From Hirschia baltica ATCC 49814 (GTDB taxonomy: Bacteria; Pseudomonadota; Alphaproteobacteria; Caulobacterales; Hyphomonadaceae): a stretch of 64,000 bases of DNA. Location of the stretch: positions 3,224,001 through 3,288,000 of the forward strand of contig NC_012982.1 in the NCBI RefSeq assembly GCF_000023785.1, in the 5' to 3' direction. Of the stretch, positions 1,924-9,221 are shown piece after piece. The position numbers were made by a program, and so were the translations under genes. Each line of letters opens with the position of its first letter. Position 1 is the first letter of the stretch. The notes under the pieces were generated by a model, which did no database searches, was not told the DNA's origin, and saw only the letters and a list, made by a program, of their open reading frames with translations.

Positions 1924-2958
1924 TTATAAAGTTTTGCTATTTCTACCCTTGAAACGGCCTAACTTTTTGTTCTGCTCTTTTTTGAACATATAGTTTTCCG
2001 TTTCCAAAGGGACATACACCTCTCCCTGAACATGGTTTGCAGATTCCTTGTTTTTTCCTTGCAAGAAAACACCATGTCCATGCGGCTGATCGCCAAACCA
2101 TGCGCCAACCCATGTCAAAACATCATCAAACCCAACACCAAAACCAACCCTTACGCCATTGATAAACTGACCGCTATAGGTCTGGTCTCTGCCATCCACT
2201 TTCTGCGTCAAAATTCCAAACCCATGCGCATCTATGCCATCGGTTTCACCTTCATACAGAATATCCTCGACAAACTCTGTCTTTTTCCATTTGATCCGGC
2301 CCCAACACACACCAGCGGAATTTGGTTTTGTATGAGAAAATGACTTTCCCAATTCTTCGCGTGCCATAGCCGCCGCCTCCTCGGCGCGACGCTCTGAATA
2401 CCGCGCTGATATAAAGGCCTGTCCTGCTTCATCAGTATAGTCTTCAGCATCAACAAGGCGCTGAAACTCAGTTCCAGCCTTGCGCGCAAAAGTCAGCGTA
2501 TAGCGCTCCATGCGCGCTTCATCCGCCTGTTTTATACTCTCTTCTAATTCGACGAAATCAATATTGAGGGAATCCTCCCCCTCCTCAAAAATTTCCTTGG
2601 CGCGAAATGGCAGGCTCGGCATTCCAATCTGGCGCCCAATCACTCGCAGCAGCGTCTTCCACTCATCCTCCAACCCGGACATCGTCGCAGTGGTGATGCG
2701 AAATACACCTTTTGCAACCTGTTTGGGCGGATCATTATCAAGCACCACATAATGTGACCCGTCCGTTGTCGTGGGGTCCAAGATCATAAATGTTTCAGAA
2801 CGTGCGCCCAGTAAAATCAAATCAGGTGGAAAATGCAGAGAACTTTCGTCTATCTCTTCTGTTCGCACCTCAAACCGGCGCAGCCAGTTTAAAAACTCAA
2901 CCATCAGCTCAGGATCTATATCATCACACATATATGTAAGTGGACGCGCTGTAGACAT
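1924..2958 (-). CDS. Hypothetical protein with C-terminal MORN-like repeats
   Basis: A 344-residue soluble protein with no signal peptide. The first 210 residues match nothing I recognise; they contain an acidic, helix-rich stretch (about 125-200). The last third carries degenerate MORN-type repeats: HGFGIL near 245, YSGQFINGVRVGFGVG at 261-276 and WVGAWFGDQPHGHGV at 284-298. MORN repeats act as protein- or lipid-contact modules. The gene is convergent with the membrane protein ending at 1919, with four bases between the two stop codons. A TTAACCAT octamer resembling a CtrA half-site lies at 2996-3003, upstream of its start. Function unknown. Confidence 0.7.
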   Translation of the reverse strand: MSTARPLTYMCDDIDPELMVEFLNWLRRFEVRTEEIDESSLHFPPDLILLGARSETFMILDPTTTDGSHYVVLDNDPPKQVAKGVFRITTATMSGLEDEWKTLLRVIGRQIGMPSLPFRAKEIFEEGEDSLNIDFVELEESIKQADEARMERYTLTFARKAGTEFQRLVDAEDYTDEAGQAFISARYSERRAEEAAAMAREELGKSFSHTKPNSAGVCWGRIKWKKTEFVEDILYEGETDGIDAHGFGILTQKVDGRDQTYSGQFINGVRVGFGVGFDDVLTWVGAWFGDQPHGHGVFLQGKNKESANHVQGEVYVPLETENYMFKKEQNKKLGRFKGRNSKTL

Positions 2959-3079
2959 AAATTCACCTGCTTAAAATTGCGAAGACATACGAACATTAAC
3001 CATGTTGGAAATTTACGCCCAAACAATGGCTCAGGGCTAGCCCTGATTTTCAATTGCACGCACGAAAGCCAAATCAAGG

Positions 3080-4255
3080 CTACATTCCTGGACGCGGCTT
3101 ATCATTTTTCGGCATTATTGACTCAAATGGCACGCGATCATTGCCCTTTGCGCCCTTGCTGGGCTGTTCTTTGTCGGCACTTCGAGTTGAATTTTTCTGA
3201 TAACCATATTTGCGCAATAATCCGCGAAACTGATTATAAGACAGACCAAGATGCTCTGCCGTGTTTTTCTGGTGGCCGCCACACGCTGCAAAAGCATCAT
3301 CAATCAGCCTTTGCTCAAAAGCCGCTGTCTGTTTTTCAAAATCAATCGGCGCATGCGAATTATGATGCTCCAGCGCTTCTCCAAGATAATCAATTTCCTC
3401 GGTCGGAATTTGTTGCTGCTTATTTTGTCCCTCACCGCCAAGCTCCACGGCGGGTCTAAACCCTGATGCAAATGGATCAAGCGCATCCATATTGAGATTA
3501 ACCGGCACATCTATCTCATGCGGCGCGCGCATCGCAAGGTCACGATACACGGCGCGCTCGGATGCATTCTTCAATTCGCGCACATTCCCCGGCCAGTCAT
3601 GCGCTTTAAAGGCAGCAATTGCGCCGCGCGAAAACCCCGGAAAAACAAATCCAAGTTCGCGCGCCATCTTGTTTCCGAAATACTCAGCCAGCTCCGCAAT
3701 ATCTTCACCGCGCGCCCGCAAGGGGGCCAACGTAATCACATCAAATGCCAAACGATCGAGAAGGTCAGCACGAAACCTTCCATCATTTGCGCGCGATGGC
3801 AAATCAACATTCGTCGCGCCAACCACGCGCACATCACAATGCAAAACTTCCTCGCCGCCCAAGCGTTGAAATTCTCCATACTCAATCACACGCAACAGCT
3901 TTTCCTGCACTTCCATACTCGCCGTTGCGATCTCATCGAGAAAAAGCGTGCCTTTATCGGCCTGCTCAAATCGTCCCAACCGGCGCTTAGTCGCCCCCGT
4001 AAAAGCGCCCTGCTCATGACCGAATAATTCAGAGTCTAGCAAATCCTCAGACAAAGCCGCGCAATTGACCTTCACAAACGGCCCATCCCACCGTTTGGAT
4101 AAGAAATGCACACGCTCTGCAATAAGCTCTTTACCCGTTCCACGCTCGCCTACGACTAGCAAAGGCCGCTCAATAGGAGCCGCAAGTGAAACGCGCTCTA
4201 AACTCTCCAACCACGCTTGTGATTGCCCGATTAATTCTGGTGCTGATCCGATCAT
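3080..4255 (-). CDS. pspF: PspF, sigma-54 activator of the phage-shock operon
   Basis: 391 residues with no receiver or other N-terminal sensor domain, as expected for PspF. Walker A is GERGTGKE (36-43), the sigma-54 contact loop GAFTGA is at 83-88, Walker B is LFLDE (104-108), and a Fis-type helix-turn-helix lies at about 315-352. The C-terminus extends some 40 residues past the HTH, so the protein is longer than the enterobacterial one (about 325). In known systems PspF is held inactive by PspA and drives the psp promoter when the envelope is damaged. Here it is divergent from that operon, with a consensus -24/-12 promoter in the gap, the classical arrangement. Confidence 0.93.
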   Translation of the reverse strand: MIGSAPELIGQSQAWLESLERVSLAAPIERPLLVVGERGTGKELIAERVHFLSKRWDGPFVKVNCAALSEDLLDSELFGHEQGAFTGATKRRLGRFEQADKGTLFLDEIATASMEVQEKLLRVIEYGEFQRLGGEEVLHCDVRVVGATNVDLPSRANDGRFRADLLDRLAFDVITLAPLRARGEDIAELAEYFGNKMARELGFVFPGFSRGAIAAFKAHDWPGNVRELKNASERAVYRDLAMRAPHEIDVPVNLNMDALDPFASGFRPAVELGGEGQNKQQQIPTEEIDYLGEALEHHNSHAPIDFEKQTAAFEQRLIDDAFAACGGHQKNTAEHLGLSYNQFRGLLRKYGYQKNSTRSADKEQPSKGAKGNDRVPFESIMPKNDKPRPGM

Positions 4256-4391
4256 AATGCATATTATATACTATATTTGTATTTTTTCTACATTTATTTT
4301 TCGTACTTTTTATACATTTTTATTAACGCGAATCTTGCCGTAAAACTAAAAAATACAGCAAAATCAAATACTAATAAAATTAATTTAAAAC

Positions 4392-4407
4392 TGGCACGGT
4401 GTTTGCA
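4392..4407 (+). promoter_or_regulatory. Sigma-54 (-24/-12) promoter of the psp operon
   Basis: TGGCACG (4392-4398), four bases, then TTGCA (4403-4407): a full match to the sigma-54 consensus, with GG at 4393-4394 and GC at 4405-4406 correctly spaced. The predicted transcript start is near 4418. The AT-rich stretch 4256-4391 upstream is the natural place for PspF and IHF binding, though I cannot point to individual sites. Confidence 0.93.
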
Positions 4408-4461
4408 AATTACTTGGCATACACGGCGACAAAGGGGCCGCCAACAACGGAGAATAAATGC

Positions 4462-4599
4462 ATGTACGACAATACAGATCACTCAAAGTCCTCGACCGAA
4501 GACACACTTAACCGGTTGGGCAACTGGCTTAAGTCTCGCCCAATTGAAAACTGGGGTTTCTTCATTGCAGGCGTGATCATCGCACGCATTCTCTTTTAA
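4462..4599 (+). CDS. 45-residue membrane peptide, first gene of the psp operon
   Basis: ATG at 4462 follows GGAG (4449-4452) by nine bases and lies about 45 bases after the predicted transcript start. A longer reading from GTG at 4399 is excluded because that codon lies inside the promoter. The peptide has a polar N-terminus (about 30 residues) and one hydrophobic helix at the very C-terminus (NWGFFIAGVIIARILF), so it looks tail-anchored. I do not recognise a family. Position as the promoter-proximal gene just before pspA suggests a regulator or membrane partner of PspA, comparable in place but not in sequence to the small accessory Psp proteins of enterobacteria. Confidence 0.75.
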   Translation: MYDNTDHSKSSTEDTLNRLGNWLKSRPIENWGFFIAGVIIARILF

Positions 4600-4625
4600 T
4601 CACTGACCCTAAAGGATACCGAACA

Positions 4626-5294
4626 ATGGGAATTTTTTCTCGCTTTGGAGACATCATAAACTCAAATCTGAACGCCATGCTCGACAAGGCTGAAGACCCT
4701 GAGAAAATCGCACGTCTAATCATTCAAGAAATGGAAGACACACTTGTAGAAGTCCGCACAGCCGCAGCCCGCACAATGGCAGACAAAAAAGAACTTCAAC
4801 GCGAAATGCGTGAACTTCAAATTGTCCGCGATGACTGGTCTGCAAAAGCAGAACTCGCAATCGAAAAAGACCGCGAAGACCTTGCACGTGGCGCTCTCTC
4901 AGCGAAACAACGCGCCGAACGCGAAATCGAAAGCCGCAAATCAGCCCTTGCTGCAGTCGATGATGCCGCCGCAAAACGTCAGGATGATCTTGGCAAACTT
5001 CAAGCCAAACTTGAAGAAGCTAAAACCAAGCACCGCGCTTTGATGGTCCGCCGCCAAGCAGCTGAAGAACGCATCAAAGTTCGCTCACGCATTGATGATT
5101 CAAAAGTTGATGACGCATTGCACCGCTACGCAGCAGTTGAGCGCAAAGTCGATGAATTAGAAGCTTATGCCGACACATACGACCTCAAAAGCAAAACACT
5201 TGAAAGTGAATTTGCAGACCTTGAGGCCTCAGAAAGTGTCGAATTGGAATTAGCCGCCATGAAAGCGCGCAAGAAATCAGGATCGGATAACTAA
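4626..5294 (+). CDS. pspA: Phage shock protein A
   Basis: 222 residues, the normal PspA length. The N-terminal amphipathic helix (MGIFSRFGDIINSNLNAMLD) and the following PEKIARLIIQEMED are family hallmarks, and the rest is almost entirely coiled coil. PspA is a peripheral inner-membrane ESCRT-III-like protein that stabilises damaged membranes and, when idle, inhibits PspF. It is the second gene of the operon and its stop codon shares one base with the pspB start (TAATG at 5292-5296), which implies coupled translation. Confidence 0.96.
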   Translation: MGIFSRFGDIINSNLNAMLDKAEDPEKIARLIIQEMEDTLVEVRTAAARTMADKKELQREMRELQIVRDDWSAKAELAIEKDREDLARGALSAKQRAEREIESRKSALAAVDDAAAKRQDDLGKLQAKLEEAKTKHRALMVRRQAAEERIKVRSRIDDSKVDDALHRYAAVERKVDELEAYADTYDLKSKTLESEFADLEASESVELELAAMKARKKSGSDN

Positions 5295-5554
5295 TGGACG
5301 AAGATATCCTCATCCCGATTATCGCAATCCTGTCGATATTCGTGATCTTCCCCGGCATGTGCATGCATTACTTTACAATGTGGCGCAGCAATAAAGGCCT
5401 CTCAGCAGATGACGAGAGAATGCTGGAAGATTTATGGCGTTCCGCCCGCACAATGGAGCGCCGCATCGAAACAATAGAAAAGCTGATCGAACCAGAGGGG
5501 CCTGAAAAAGCCCCTCGCCGCCCCAGAAGCGATTTTCGCGACCTCGACGGTTAA
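5294..5554 (+). CDS. pspB: Phage shock protein B
   Basis: 86 residues: one N-terminal membrane helix (about 5-27), then a helical cytoplasmic tail with RIETIEKLIEPEGPEK, the PspB signature area. It ends RSDFRDLDG, slightly longer than the 74-residue enterobacterial protein. PspB and PspC sense inner-membrane stress and draw PspA away from PspF. Its start overlaps the pspA stop by one base. The tail module (R-x-E-x-hydrophobic-E followed by F-R-D-L) recurs in PspC and three later small proteins of this operon. Confidence 0.93.
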   Translation: MDEDILIPIIAILSIFVIFPGMCMHYFTMWRSNKGLSADDERMLEDLWRSARTMERRIETIEKLIEPEGPEKAPRRPRSDFRDLDG

Positions 5555-5586
5555 TACGATCAATTCAGAATAGAAAGAATTTTAAG

Positions 5587-5991
5587 ATGGACGAGTATTC
5601 AAACTATAAAAATCCTAAGAGATTTTACCGCCCGACAAATGACCGCATGATTGGTGGTGTTTGTGCCGGTATCGCCGAGCGCATGGGATGGGACCCGTTA
5701 TTGGTTCGTATCGCAGCCGTTGTATCTATGATTACAGGTGTATTTTCCGGTGTTGTTTTTGCCGGATATCTCATCACATGGGCTGTCACACCCAAGCGTC
5801 GCACAATGCACAATATGACAAAGGACGAAGAGTCTTTTTGGCAGGGCGTATCTGACCGCCCGAAAGTTACACTGTCTAACATCAGATACAAATTCATGGA
5901 CCTAGAAGACCGGATGCAGGGTGTAGAAAAAGCCGTCACATCAGATGAATGGCGCCTACGCAGACAATTTCGTGATCTAGAAAAAAGTTAG
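5587..5991 (+). CDS. pspC: Phage shock protein C
   Basis: 134 residues. The PspC domain covers about 12-70, with the signature MIGGVCAGIAERMGWDP and a long hydrophobic stretch at 38-68. The C-terminal tail (105-134) contains RMQGVEKAVTSDEWRLRRQF and then RDL, a helical module also present in the three small proteins encoded downstream. PspC acts with PspB as the membrane sensor of the Psp response. The gene lies 32 bases after pspB in the same orientation and is surely co-transcribed. Confidence 0.94.
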   Translation: MDEYSNYKNPKRFYRPTNDRMIGGVCAGIAERMGWDPLLVRIAAVVSMITGVFSGVVFAGYLITWAVTPKRRTMHNMTKDEESFWQGVSDRPKVTLSNIRYKFMDLEDRMQGVEKAVTSDEWRLRRQFRDLEKS

Positions 5992-6011
5992 CAAAAATCG
6001 AGCTGTATTAT

Positions 6012-6039
6012 CGGACCTCCCAAAAAATATAATGGTCCG
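6012..6039 (+). promoter_or_regulatory. Intercistronic hairpin after pspC
   Basis: CGGACC (6012-6017) pairs perfectly with GGTCCG (6034-6039) around a 16-base AT-rich loop. No T-run follows, so it is unlikely to be a full terminator. It may stabilise or process the psp transcript and set lower expression of the distal genes. Confidence 0.4.
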
Positions 6040-6073
6040 GTAGCGCAGCGAGAAGCAGAAGAGGGAAAATAAA

Positions 6074-6331
6074 ATGGCACTGCAATTCTCAACACGCGTC
6101 ATAGCGGCAACAAGCCTACTGACAACTGGTTTAATCGCCCTGACAATCGCATCTCAGAATGGTGAAATCAGCGTTCGAACCGCCGGCTTAGAAGTGAAAT
6201 ACTTCCAAGCAGACGCACAAACAGGCAAAGCACTTGAAATCAATCAGGAACAATGCCCGCCGCAATGCCCTCTTCTCGATATCAATTGGAAAAAATACGC
6301 AGACGCAACTAGCTTGAAGATTTTACGCTAG
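6074..6331 (+). CDS. Small membrane-anchored or secreted protein in the psp operon, unknown
   Basis: 85 residues after GAGGG (6060-6064). The N-terminus has one hydrophobic helix (about 9-26, AATSLLTTGLIALTIAS) that could be a signal anchor, followed by a soluble part with a cysteine-proline cluster (EQCPPQCPLLD). I know no family for it. It lies between pspC and three PspB-like proteins in the same direction, so it is probably under the same sigma-54 promoter. Unlike its neighbours it lacks the shared C-terminal R-E-R-F helix module, and its conserved-looking part would face the periplasm if the helix is an anchor. Confidence 0.65.
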   Translation: MALQFSTRVIAATSLLTTGLIALTIASQNGEISVRTAGLEVKYFQADAQTGKALEINQEQCPPQCPLLDINWKKYADATSLKILR

Positions 6332-6385
6332 ACATCGAATTTTCTGCTAAATTGCAAACGACAACAAGAAAGAGGAGACAGAAAA

Positions 6386-6691
6386 ATGGAAGGCGGACAA
6401 GTAATGGTCGTCTGCATCGTGGCGCTAGTGATGTTGACCAGCCTGATCAAGGCATCAATCCAAAGCAAAAACAATGCAAACAAAAAAGATATGCGGAAGG
6501 CAAACGAAAACACTGCTCAAACAGACGAATTGCTTTTCAAAATGAACGACCAGCTCGACCGCATTACAGCCAGACTAACAGCGCTGGAAACCATTGTGAC
6601 CGACGAAGACCGCGAGCTTAAACGTGAGTTCCAAACCTTAAAAAGCGACGTTTCCAATGTCCGTAAATCCGTAGACACAGACCGTTATTAA
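6386..6691 (+). CDS. PspB-like small membrane protein, paralogue 1
   Basis: 101 residues preceded by GAGGAG (6371-6376). One N-terminal membrane helix (about 6-23), then a coiled-coil tail with RITARLTALETIVTDEDREL and KREFQTL. The order helix, linker, heptad region and R-x3-LE-x5-D-x4-LKR-x-F motif copies the PspB/PspC tail. It is not a strict PspB by sequence in the membrane part. Likely role: an extra sensor or oligomerisation partner in the Psp membrane complex (inference from context and shared module). Confidence 0.75.
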   Translation: MEGGQVMVVCIVALVMLTSLIKASIQSKNNANKKDMRKANENTAQTDELLFKMNDQLDRITARLTALETIVTDEDRELKREFQTLKSDVSNVRKSVDTDRY

Positions 6692-6706
6692 GAGAAAGCC
6701 CAAATT

Positions 6707-6931
6707 ATGGATGTATTTGTATTTGTCGTCATTATCGTTGCCATTGGTTGCGGCACAGGAATTGTCACCTCCTATTTTGAAAATAAAGGCAAGTCCGGAA
6801 GCAAGATTAGCGACGCAGAGTTTGCCGAAATCGTCAGCAAATTAGACAAAACCATTACCCGCGTTGAAACACTTGAGCGCTTGGCCCTCGATAGCGACCA
6901 AGACCTCAAACGAGAATTTCGCAACCTTTAG
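6707..6931 (+). CDS. PspB-like small membrane protein, paralogue 2
   Basis: 74 residues, exactly enterobacterial PspB length. N-terminal helix VFVFVVIIVAIGCGTGIVTS (3-22), then YFENKGKSG and a coiled coil ending RVETLERLALDSDQDLKREF-RNL. It is a close sister of the protein encoded at 6977: both begin MD(V/I)(F/Y)VF, both have a YFE motif after the helix, and both have LD-x4-TR-x-ETLERLA. It starts 15 bases after the previous gene, so the genes are translated from one message. Confidence 0.78.
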   Translation: MDVFVFVVIIVAIGCGTGIVTSYFENKGKSGSKISDAEFAEIVSKLDKTITRVETLERLALDSDQDLKREFRNL

Positions 6932-6976
6932 TGAATACAATATAAGCACTCACTCTATTTCAAACAGGCAAATGTT

Positions 6977-7222
6977 ATGGATATTTATGTATTTTTTCTG
7001 CTGTTAGCCGTCATCATATTCGTGACTTGCGGCGTCACAATCTATTTTGAGGCCAAAGTCACCGCAGGAAGCCGCGTCACGGAAGGTCAGTTCAAAGAAC
7101 TTACTGAAAAACTGGATATCGCCCTCACAAGAATTGAAACGCTGGAACGTCTAGCCACAGACGAAAACGAGCACCTCAAACGCCGCTTTGATGAAATATC
7201 AAAACAGCCAAATTACGCCTAA
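6977..7222 (+). CDS. PspB-like small membrane protein, paralogue 3
   Basis: 81 residues; membrane helix about 3-23, then IYFEAKVTAGSRVTEGQF, a heptad region and RIETLERLATDENEHLKRRF. Clearly a tandem duplicate relative of the protein encoded just upstream. It is the last gene of the psp operon: 19 bases after its stop comes the stop codon of the opposing mnmC gene. No good terminator hairpin was seen in that gap, so read-through antisense into mnmC is possible. Confidence 0.78.
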   Translation: MDIYVFFLLLAVIIFVTCGVTIYFEAKVTAGSRVTEGQFKELTEKLDIALTRIETLERLATDENEHLKRRFDEISKQPNYA

Positions 7223-7241
7223 GATAATTTATGACACACAC

Positions 7242-9221
7242 CTAATCTTTTTTCGGTTTTTCACGCTTCAATTGACGCATAAAAAACCGCGCCGGTGCAA
7301 TGAGTTCTCGACTGTCAGCCCCAGTTGGAACTGGCCCCCCAAATGCATCGGCGACGATTATCTGCGCCAGAAATGGTGCCCATGTCAGCCCGCGCGACCC
7401 TAAGCCCCCCGCTGCATACATACCCCGCTGATAAAGCGCCTTGAAACCTTGCCCATCTATAGGTTTCAAGGCTCTTCCTGTCCGCAGATCCTCACCATAA
7501 TGCGCTCGATAGGCTGCAAATTCCGGCAATCGCCCCGCAAAAGGCAATTGATCCGGCGTTGCCGCGCGCACAGCCGTTGCAGATTGGACCTTCCCAGAGA
7601 GAATTTTTTCTTTGAGTTCTGGTGCCAACACATCCAGCGCAAGCATATTCTCCGCCCGCGCGGCATCACTCGCTTCTGGCGCTTTCCCATCACTATCTTG
7701 ATAGGTGGCCCCAAATACGATTTTACCATTCGCACCCACAACATAATGCCCCTTTGACCGCGCAAAGTCAGGGCCATCATATTGCGCATATTCCAATTGG
7801 CCGCCGCGTCCGCGCAATGGCAGCCCCTCGCCGCCCGCAAGATCAGCTATCCCCATGCCTGCCGCGATGACAACAAGATCCGCCTCATATTCAAAGACCT
7901 GCCCATCACGTATCGCCGTCACACATCGTTGTGCGCCATCTACCGCACCAATCGAGGTGATTTTCGTATTCCAGACAACATTGATATCTTTGAGCAATTG
8001 CGACCGCACATCCACAGGTGAAACCGCCATAGAAGAAAGATAATTCAGACCCATCTGCCTGCCCTCATCTTCCAAAACACCAAGTAAATCAGTATCCAAT
8101 GGCGGATCATCTTTTATCTTCGCATGTCGCCCAATCTCTTCATTCGAACTTGAAAAATGCGCCGTATCCACAGGCCATGCGCCAATATTTTGCGTCTTGT
8201 AAAAGGCAATGGCAGCAAGATAGGCATCAATCAAAAGCCTTGCTTGCGGCGTATCTGCGCCATCCAGTCTTGGTGCAACCAAACCAAGCGGATTTGCGCT
8301 CGCGCCTTCTTCTATACCTTCCCCCTTATCCAAAACCGTCACATCACAGCCGCGTTCATGGAAAGCCTGCGCCATGCATGCCCCCATAATTCCGGCCCCA
8401 ATCACAATCACGCTAGCAGGACACGCTCGTTCGGTGTTCAGCAGCAATGGATCACAATATATCTCAGGCTTGGGCAGTGTTGGATAAATTGCCTGCATTC
8501 TTTCGCGTTTCGTGCCAAATCCGGGCTGTTTGGAAACCTCAAAACCACCCGCAGCGAGTGCCCTTCTAACATGTCCCGCCACGGTATAGGTGCCAACAAC
8601 ACATTCAGGCGCTGAATGTAGGGCAATTTGCGCCATCACCTCTGAAGACCACATTTCTGGATTTTTTGCTGGCGAAAATCCATCCAAAAACCAGGCATCG
8701 GCTTTAAAAGCTGTATTTTTTAACGCCGGTTCAATCTCATCTTGAACAATCAACAGTGACATACCAAAATCTAGACAGAGTCTCTGCACTCCCTTCGCAC
8801 GAACTGGCCACAAACTCAGCAGTGTTTGCACATCAGATGCTAACTCTGGCCACACTGAAAGCGCAGTTTTTGCATCCTCAACCCGCATTAAGCGCCCTTC
8901 AAAACTGATCACTTCCAGCCTTGCCTGCGGATTGGGACGATGCTCTCGCCACAGCTGACGCAGCGCCGCAATATTTAGCCCCGTGCCAAATCCCAGCTCT
9001 CCAATTGTGAAGGTATTTGATGCACTTATCCCCGCCCTCATGGCTTGCCAGCGATCAACTAATCCACACCCTCTAAAAAAAACCTCGCGTGTTTCTTCCA
9101 ACCCATTAGATACGCTAAAATACACATCATCATTGATCTGATCACGCGGAACTCCATCCTCTTGCCAATATAATTCGGGTCGAGGCGGAAGACGTTTTGA
9201 TTTGAACATATTTTCTGACAT
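7242..9221 (-). CDS. mnmC: Bifunctional tRNA mnm5s2U34 methyltransferase/oxidase MnmC
   Basis: About 659 residues, typical of MnmC. The N-terminal half is the SAM-dependent methyltransferase (ELGFGTGLN motif, then FLDGFSPAKNPEMW), the C-terminal half an FAD oxidoreductase starting at VIVIGAGIMGACMAQAF. The enzyme removes the carboxymethyl group from cmnm5s2U34 and then methylates nm5s2U34 in the wobble position of certain tRNAs. I chose the ATG at 9221 (MSENMF); a reading from 9245 adds MRRRIRVC, which does not look like the family start. Convergent with the psp operon. Confidence 0.93.
   Translation of the reverse strand: MSENMFKSKRLPPRPELYWQEDGVPRDQINDDVYFSVSNGLEETREVFFRGCGLVDRWQAMRAGISASNTFTIGELGFGTGLNIAALRQLWREHRPNPQARLEVISFEGRLMRVEDAKTALSVWPELASDVQTLLSLWPVRAKGVQRLCLDFGMSLLIVQDEIEPALKNTAFKADAWFLDGFSPAKNPEMWSSEVMAQIALHSAPECVVGTYTVAGHVRRALAAGGFEVSKQPGFGTKRERMQAIYPTLPKPEIYCDPLLLNTERACPASVIVIGAGIMGACMAQAFHERGCDVTVLDKGEGIEEGASANPLGLVAPRLDGADTPQARLLIDAYLAAIAFYKTQNIGAWPVDTAHFSSSNEEIGRHAKIKDDPPLDTDLLGVLEDEGRQMGLNYLSSMAVSPVDVRSQLLKDINVVWNTKITSIGAVDGAQRCVTAIRDGQVFEYEADLVVIAAGMGIADLAGGEGLPLRGRGGQLEYAQYDGPDFARSKGHYVVGANGKIVFGATYQDSDGKAPEASDAARAENMLALDVLAPELKEKILSGKVQSATAVRAATPDQLPFAGRLPEFAAYRAHYGEDLRTGRALKPIDGQGFKALYQRGMYAAGGLGSRGLTWAPFLAQIIVADAFGGPVPTGADSRELIAPARFFMRQLKREKPKKD

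What the first reader, a model, noticed from the sequence alone, without database searches (positions are those of the whole stretch)
4392..7222. Expanded phage-shock operon with three extra PspB-like proteins and a new 45-residue membrane peptide
Behind one consensus sigma-54 promoter come a tail-anchored 45-residue peptide, pspA, pspB, pspC, an unknown membrane-anchored protein and three consecutive small proteins, each with one N-terminal helix and a coiled-coil tail. The usual alphaproteobacterial locus has only pspF, A, B and C. The three additional proteins look like duplicated and diversified PspB subunits that could tune sensor stoichiometry or respond to different membrane signals.
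Basis: partly seen in the sequence, partly recalled or inferred. Interest (0 to 1): 0.85.

Follow-up and report, generated by a model that had tools for sequence, protein, structure and literature searches.

The report
Psp stress operon with extra adaptors
A marine bacterium's membrane-stress (phage shock) operon carries three extra small membrane proteins that are not simple copies of PspB, as first thought, but belong to a separate family, amplified to as many as six genes in relatives, most of whose members end in a tail like the one by which PspC is reported to bind PspA.

Summary
In Hirschia baltica one perfect sigma-54 site is followed by x45 (45 aa), pspA, pspB, pspC, u85 and three one-helix/coiled-coil genes (D101, D74, D81), with pspF divergent. 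'Duplicated PspB' is only partly right. In a tree of 115 rows, 76 D proteins form one side of a branch against 39 PspB, PspC and other extra proteins (support 97/97; few columns). A PspC-type post-coil motif is met by 55 of 64 extra proteins, 79 of 83 PspC tails and 0 of 83 PspB tails; it was written after seeing the sequences, D81 misses it, and whole-tail profiles are ambiguous. Psp-linked arrays of 2-6 D genes occur in 11 of 37 Hyphomonadaceae psp loci, all in one clade, and in another family (f17). In 11 of 12 stretches read, Hyphomonadaceae also keep a D near dut; that slot is empty in H. baltica. x45 lies before pspA in 43 of 46 loci. Best explanation: induced, C-in adaptors displaying PspC-like PspA-docking tails without PspC's head. 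Binding is inferred, not shown. Ravi et al. 2024 already report 'PspB duplicates' in psp operons: a new variant of a known kind.

The parts
3080..4255 (-). pspF, sigma-54 activator (391 aa), divergent
   Evidence: TIGR02974 469.3 bits, cut-off 443.55
4392..4407 (+). sigma-54 (-24/-12) promoter TGGCACGGTGTTTGCA
   Evidence: every scored consensus position matched; GG and GC kept in 11 of 11 array-bearing loci
4462..4599 (+). x45: 45-aa peptide with C-terminal hydrophobic stretch; invariant R, E, W, FF, G
   Evidence: before pspA in 43 of 46 psp loci of the order; no family match of weight
4626..5294 (+). pspA
   Evidence: TIGR02977 277.6 bits, cut-off 242.95
5294..5554 (+). pspB
   Evidence: PF06667 84.2 bits; TIGR02976 57.6 bits, cut-off 51.7
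5587..5991 (+). pspC, with tail VEKAVTSDEWRLRRQFRDL
   Evidence: TIGR02978 112.5 bits, cut-off 104; motif
6074..6331 (+). u85: one membrane helix, then a short part with CPxxC
   Evidence: found in 37 of 37 Hyphomonadaceae psp loci and 0 of 9 other loci of the order; fold prediction poor (pLDDT 51); Pfam only weak single-member hits
6386..6691 (+). D101: membrane helix plus coil and tail LETIVTDEDRELKREFQTL (strict motif)
   Evidence: TIGR02978 (PspC) 2.7e-7 over positions 45-121, below cut-off; two helices 4-35 and 39-100, pLDDT 72
6707..6931 (+). D74: same plan, tail LERLALDSDQDLKREFRNL (loose motif only)
   Evidence: D-family tree and pairwise scores; motif
6977..7222 (+). D81: same plan, tail LERLATDENEHLKRRFDEI (misses the motif at its last position)
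   Evidence: groups with D74 (FastTree 1.0); motif

Best explanation
The locus is a PspF/sigma-54 phage-shock operon extended by three members of a separate small-protein family, here called D, plus two further small membrane proteins (x45, u85). A typical D protein has one N-terminal membrane helix with its C-terminus in the cytoplasm, a short coiled coil and a PspC-type tail, but no N-terminal PspC domain, like a natural 'headless PspC'. When membrane stress frees PspF, the D proteins are made together with PspA, pair with PspB/PspC or with each other through helix and coil, and offer further PspA-docking tails at the membrane. This would raise the gain of the switch, recruit PspA to damage, and let different membrane helices respond to different lesions. 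Shown here: gene content, promoter, homology group, selection, distribution, topology by charge rule. Inferred: co-transcription, PspA binding, pairing, signal specificity.
For: Promoter and tight gene spacing. D is its own group apart from PspB and PspC (97/97). Post-coil motif: 55 of 64 extra proteins, 79 of 83 PspC tails, 0 of 83 PspB tails. D101 matches PspC positions 45-121, helix plus tail. All 37 Hyphomonadaceae D proteins scored as helix-bearing are C-in by charge. In E. coli, overproduced PspC40-119 (helix plus tail) induces psp without co-expressed PspB and contacts PspA in one two-hybrid orientation; soluble PspC69-119 does so only with PspB; leucine-zipper mutants fail to contact PspA (PMC3068692, passages). 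In Yersinia the PspC C-terminal cytoplasmic domain binds PspA in the on state (PMC5596341, passages). D and PspA tend to be lost together: of 105 family genomes 96 have both, 4 neither, 2 PspA only, 3 D only (Fisher p 1e-4). Purifying selection.
Against: Whole-tail profiles are ambiguous: the PspC tail beats the PspB tail in only 29 of 64, many scores lie within the range of shuffles (maxima 8.8 and 5.6 bits), and for D81 the PspB tail scores higher (9.3 against 4.4). Curated models match PspB in 22 and PspC in 20 of 29 D proteins. The motif was written after seeing the sequences and D81 misses it. The charge rule leans to C-in because few residues precede the helix. In E. coli only full-length PspC, not its fragments, passes on the pIV signal, and that paper treats the tail as periplasmic with switching topology. 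Most Hyphomonadaceae have no D in the psp operon. The co-loss may be few events (three of the four double negatives are one genus) and some genomes are incomplete. No expression or binding data exist; no solved structure matches PspC, and the D profile finds only weak matches, best E 0.087.
Confidence: 0.48

Rival explanations
1. The extra proteins act as additional PspB subunits that swap into the PspB-PspC complex and keep PspC silent, changing sensor stoichiometry.
For: Same plan as PspB (helix, coil). PspB models match weakly: TIGR02976 E 6.5e-4, 0.0084 and 0.022 for the three, and 22 of 29 family members; D74 and D81 fit PspB better than PspC. True PspB duplicates occur in L045 and L109/L117.
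Against: Below PspB cut-offs; the tree sets them apart from PspB (97/97); most have a PspC-type extension that PspB lacks (0 of 83).
Confidence: 0.22
2. The D proteins are decoys or brakes: their tails hold PspB or PspA and switch the response off again, a negative feedback.
For: They would be made from the induced operon itself; PspB-PspC cytoplasmic contact is silencing in Yersinia (title of Flores-Kim and Darwin 2016, seen only in the reference list of PMC5596341).
Against: The E. coli analogue PspC40-119 induces psp rather than silencing it (PMC3068692); the sequence does not tell the sign.
Confidence: 0.15
3. The D proteins are general membrane-anchored coiled-coil proteins with their own role (as beside dut) that merely share the psp promoter here.
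For: A D gene near dut in 11 of 12 non-psp stretches read; simple helix-coil build.
Against: D arrays also in the psp operon of another family (f17); joint loss with PspA; tail motif shared with PspC.
Confidence: 0.15

Closest known systems
PspB (PF06667 / TIGR02976)
   Same: one N-terminal helix, coil, same operon
   Different: D proteins score below cut-off, form a separate tree group, and most add a PspC-type stretch after the coil
PspC C-terminal half (E. coli PspC40-119; TIGR02978)
   Same: helix plus zipper-like tail with the same spacing after the coil; D101 aligns to model positions 45-121
   Different: no N-terminal PspC domain; separate genes, several per operon; D81 misses the motif
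'PspB duplicates' and PspC fused to a divergent PspB (Ravi et al. 2024, PMC11237479)
   Same: extra PspB-like genes in a psp operon are already reported (example AOL22920.1), and a PspB-like part fused to PspC is described
   Different: the passages I saw do not describe a separate family, array sizes, x45, u85 or a dut-linked relative; its supplements could not be read here
PspD / PspG of E. coli
   Same: small proteins of the Psp regulon, as x45 and u85 may be
   Different: no family match of x45 or u85 to them appeared in the Pfam/NCBIfam scans; Ravi et al. [quoted passage not shown] x45 lies before pspA

Membership tests
PspF-pspABC phage-shock operon | PspA, PspB, PspC and PspF equivalogs over NCBIfam cut-offs | tested here: met
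   277.6, 57.6, 112.5 and 469.3 bits against 242.95, 51.7, 104 and 443.55
PspF-pspABC phage-shock operon | divergent pspF and a sigma-54 promoter before the operon | tested here: met
PspF-pspABC phage-shock operon | PspF-dependent induction under membrane stress | not testable with these tools
   needs RNA-seq or reporters
PspB | D101, D74, D81 pass the PspB cut-off | tested here: not met
   PF06667 10.7, 15.1, 15.3 bits, cut-off 25.6; TIGR02976 19.9, 16.4, 15.0 bits, cut-off 51.7
PspB | one N-terminal helix, C-terminus in | tested here: met
   3 of 3 in the window and 37 of 37 scored as helix-bearing, by hydropathy and charge only
PspB | groups with PspB in a tree | tested here: not met
   separated from PspB and PspC with 97/97 (80 columns, program warns of few columns and long branches)
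PspC | N-terminal PspC domain (PF04024) | tested here: not met
   no PF04024 match for the three D proteins at E up to 1
PspC | PspC-type post-coil tail motif | tested here: inconclusive
   D101 meets the strict form, D74 only the loose form, D81 neither; 55 of 64 (loose) and 46 of 64 (strict) of all extra proteins
PspC | tail binds PspA | not testable with these tools
   needs two-hybrid or pull-down

The most novel reading that the evidence does not exclude
D is a third family of Psp membrane adaptors beside PspB and PspC: headless PspC-type tails, some on different membrane helices and some soluble (one or two helix-free members in 7 of 8 arrays of three genera, recalling E. coli PspC69-119), assembled into arrays of 2-6 that turn the two-protein Psp switch into a multi-input sensor. 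The D ancestor worked with Psp from a distance (near dut), and its gene moved into the psp operon in the Hirschia baltica lineage.
Probability: 0.32. Interest if true: 0.68.

Novelty: new variant of a known kind. Interest (0 to 1): 0.52.

Why it matters
How PspB and PspC sense membrane damage and hand PspA over from PspF is unsettled even in E. coli and Yersinia; the two papers seen here differ on which side of the membrane the PspC tail lies. Natural, separately encoded PspC-like tails, amplified and diversified in a clade of marine bacteria, would allow direct tests of which part docks PspA, whether the membrane helix selects the signal, and whether the number of tails sets the gain. x45, directly before pspA in several alphaproteobacterial families, is an unassigned candidate Psp component.

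Tried and rejected
Rejected or held back: (1) 'Recent PspB tandem copies': D proteins group apart from PspB. (2) 'The D tail is plainly PspC's': my first test, whole-tail profiles, did not give it (PspC better in 29 of 64); I claim only the post-coil motif, written after looking. (3) 'D74/D81 are the dut-linked gene moved into psp': FastTree groups them (0.90) and the dut slot is empty in H. baltica, but IQ-TREE does not recover the group and D74's best pairwise hit is a psp-linked D of L045 (43.8 bits against 41.5 for a D near dut). Kept as suggestive. (4) GTA head protein NF048001 match to D81 (4.6e-4; 2 of 29 members): 34 residues of coil, judged chance. (5) Rfam: nothing in 3000-7400. (6) u85 model too poor to search (pLDDT 51); no fold search was run. 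Weak Pfam hits of single u85 members (best 0.0016) judged chance. (7) Family f17 could not be named; Sphingomonadaceae is my recall only. (8) My counter gave L078 two D genes: artefact (its pspB and pspC), dropped; L078 ends just after pspC. L063's D at +3899 is its copy near dut and was not counted as psp-linked. (9) Some start choices are wrong (L035 second D; helix-free D of L060, L064, L068), so large gaps and overlaps for those loci are artefacts. In one search, two of the eleven L060/L064 rows pair pspA with x45 and were dropped. (10) The stretch L082 was cut by my own coordinates; only part of its dut is seen. (11) The second PspA loci of G302 and G397 were not read.
Full report
Identity of the window. 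The genome (3,540,114 bases, main contig 3,455,622) has exactly the sizes published for the Hirschia baltica type strain (3,455,622 bp chromosome plus 84,492 bp plasmid; PMC3368421, passages). The contig of same-genus genome G001 (289,833 bases) has the length of a contig titled Hirschia sp. SP140 (L120) and an overlapping range. Family f1 of the tool is therefore Hyphomonadaceae; record titles (Hyphomonas, Ponticaulis, uncultured Hyphomonadaceae) agree.

What is there. Along the + strand: pspF (divergent), a perfect sigma-54 site, x45, pspA, pspB, pspC, u85, D101, D74, D81; the next gene is convergent, its stop codon lying 19 bases beyond that of D81. PspA, PspB, PspC and PspF pass their curated cut-offs. 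The sigma-54 site scores 19.2 of 19.2, and nothing from pspA to 4.3 kb onward scores above 16.7. In the 11 array-bearing loci the GG and GC pairs of the site are kept (18.2-19.2) and it beats every site in the downstream stretch scanned (at most 17.2). A sigma-70 scan finds no more sites than shuffles do (5 against 4.2).

Are the small genes real? Against G002 of the same genus all eight genes are in the same order, with pN/pS of 0.32 (x45), 0.27 (u85), 0.33, 0.18 and 0.29 (D genes), against 0.10-0.19 for pspA/B/C. Synonymous change is near saturation. Within genus g5 (L060 against L064) the six D pairs give dN/dS 0.07-0.15 (two of eleven rows were mispaired and dropped). The D genes are under purifying selection but change faster than the core.

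Distribution of D genes near psp. PspA was found in 46 of 61 genomes (the window, 36 family relatives, 9 others of the order), and one locus of each was read. D genes lie downstream in 11 of 37 family loci (2 to 6 copies) and in 0 of 9 others. Limits: four of the 26 D-free family loci are on short stretches that end 2.6-4.7 kb after the start of pspA, and L078 (order) ends just after pspC. A FastTree tree of PspA+B+C+F puts the 11 in one clade that holds no D-free locus (0.994), so in this gene tree a single gain suffices.

Wider survey. Of 289 genomes drawn across the class, 30 have PspA. One locus of each was read (28, plus the window and L041). Seven of 30 have extra PspB/PspC-like genes: the window; three genomes of family f17 with 3, 4 and 5 D genes (L093 has a fifth, weak one); two of f56 with one clean PspB duplicate and one clean PspC-tail duplicate (about 50 and 49 bits to the matching tail profile); one of f19 with one extra. 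So extra genes of some kind occur in four families, D arrays in two.

What D is. A D profile finds a match (E up to 1e-4) in 99 of 105 family genomes. I fetched 12 stretches around matches outside psp. All 12 hold a D, found with a profile from which the one such row was removed (E 2e-26 to 2e-19). dut is within 150 bases in 8 of 12, within 1.6 kb in three more, and not seen in one short contig. Five of the 12 have a second, shorter D-like ORF (E 4e-10 to 6e-8). In H. baltica coaBC, dut and the helicase are in the same region but there is no D between them, and no D is found outside psp (E up to 1). A tree of 115 rows over 80 columns puts the 76 D rows (46 psp-linked, 18 from the dut regions, 12 from f17; one gene is in twice, as L063 and L085) on one side of a branch against 39 PspB, PspC, f56 and f19 rows, support 97/97. 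The program warns of few columns and long branches. D is thus best seen as a third group of the PspB/PspC-tail superfamily rather than as fresh PspB copies. Whether f1 and f17 share an ancestral D, or one was transferred, is open.

The tail. After the coil, PspC goes on with VT(S/D)xxxxLxRxFxxL; PspB stops. A pattern for this, written after looking, is met by 79 of 83 PspC tails, 0 of 83 PspB tails and 55 of 64 extra proteins (strict form 71, 0 and 46). The 64 include the four f56 and the one f19 extras. The PspB and PspC tails came from loci outside the array-bearing families, many of them gammaproteobacterial. In the window D101 meets the strict form, D74 the loose form, D81 neither. Whole-tail profiles do not decide (PspC better in 29 of 64; 1280 shuffles reach 8.8 and 5.6 bits), and the curated models match both (22 and 20 of 29).

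Shape and topology. Of 47 Hyphomonadaceae D proteins, 37 were scored as having an N-terminal helix, and all 37 have more positive charge after it than before, so the tail should be cytoplasmic; few residues precede the helix, so this test leans that way. Of the ten others, one (L035) has a helix when its start is set right, and nine have none in the whole open frame. These nine lie in 7 of the 8 arrays of genera g5, g7 and g10. AlphaFold gives D101 two helices, 4-35 and 39-100 (pLDDT 72, five rows only).

Link with PspA. Over 105 family genomes: both 96, neither 4, PspA only 2, D only 3; Fisher p 1e-4, and 1.4e-4 for the 89 genomes of good quality. Relatedness is not corrected for: three of the four double negatives are genus g5. 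In 24 relatives of the order outside the family, 7 have matches; all are weak (1.8e-7 to 9.2e-5) and lie at the place of PspB or PspC.

Mechanism. In Yersinia, on-state PspC binds PspA by its C-terminal cytoplasmic domain (PMC5596341, passages). In E. coli, overproduced PspC40-119 induces psp without co-expressed PspB and contacts PspA in one two-hybrid orientation; soluble PspC69-119 needs PspB; zipper mutants fail (PMC3068692, passages). The same paper reports that no fragment replaces full-length PspC in pIV signalling, and it places the tail in the periplasm with a switch of topology. The helix-bearing D proteins are built like the first fragment and the helix-free ones recall the second. 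Extra PspA-docking tails are therefore my best guess; the sign of the effect and any signal specificity are unknown.

x45 and u85. x45 lies before pspA in 43 of 46 loci of the order (absent from the three g14 loci). It is found in 8 of 289 class genomes, all 8 with PspA and directly upstream of it by position; only 24 candidates per genome were scored, so this is a lower bound, and a weak further one is in L099. It is in 23 of 80 named loci, including Litorimonas, Robiginitomaculum, Hellea, Algimonas and Azospirillum, and in none of the gammaproteobacterial ones. Invariant residues are R, E, W, FF and G. u85 is in 37 of 37 family loci and none of the 9 others; its fold is unknown.

Literature. 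Ravi et al. 2024 (PMC11237479, passages) report PspB duplicates in psp operons and PspC fused to a divergent PspB. PMC9239133 (passages) reports multiple PspC per genome and suggests that different stimuli may be integrated by individual PspC proteins. Searches for phage shock with Hyphomonas and PspA (none), with Sphingomonadaceae (one, judged unrelated from its listing), for pspABC with alphaproteobacteria (only Ravi) and for PspB with paralog/tandem (18 papers, 12 listed) showed no description of this family. The library lacks most subscription papers, so this is weak evidence of absence.

Noticed in passing
L080-L091; L204:3080-3756: Hyphomonadaceae keep a D gene near dut (11 of 12 stretches, within 1.6 kb), often with coaBC and a PIF1-like helicase; 5 of 12 have a second short D-like ORF. 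In H. baltica a different 237-aa gene follows dut instead.
   Followed up: partly
L042, L045, L049, L055, L060, L064, L068 (arrays): Arrays in genera g5, g7 and g10 contain one or two D proteins without any membrane helix; one type has a very basic, tryptophan-bearing N-terminal part (RAAWRARRAARxxxxDWxHxxDPKFWGLD in three of them).
   Followed up: partly
upstream of x45 in genera g4, g6, g8, g9 (e.g. L041, L063): The best sigma-54-like site reads TGGCAC with TTGAA, GA instead of GC at -12, in these D-free genera; g3, also D-free, keeps GC, as do the array-bearing genera.
   Followed up: no
G029, G067, G073, G074, G075, G077, G078, G079, G083: In at least nine g4 genomes the D outside the psp operon lies only about 3-6 kb from pspA, so the two loci are near neighbours.
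   Followed up: no
L045 +704 to +1538: Three consecutive true pspB genes before pspC in G011, besides six D genes after it.
   Followed up: partly
window 4571-4597: Weak terminator-like hairpin (5 pairs) followed by ATTCTCTTTT at the end of x45, before pspA; attenuator or chance (nine such sites in the region against 4.8 in shuffles, six of nine on the other strand).
   Followed up: no
window 1924-2958 (-): 344-aa protein with MORN repeats (PF02493, 1.4e-5) next to pspF.
   Followed up: no
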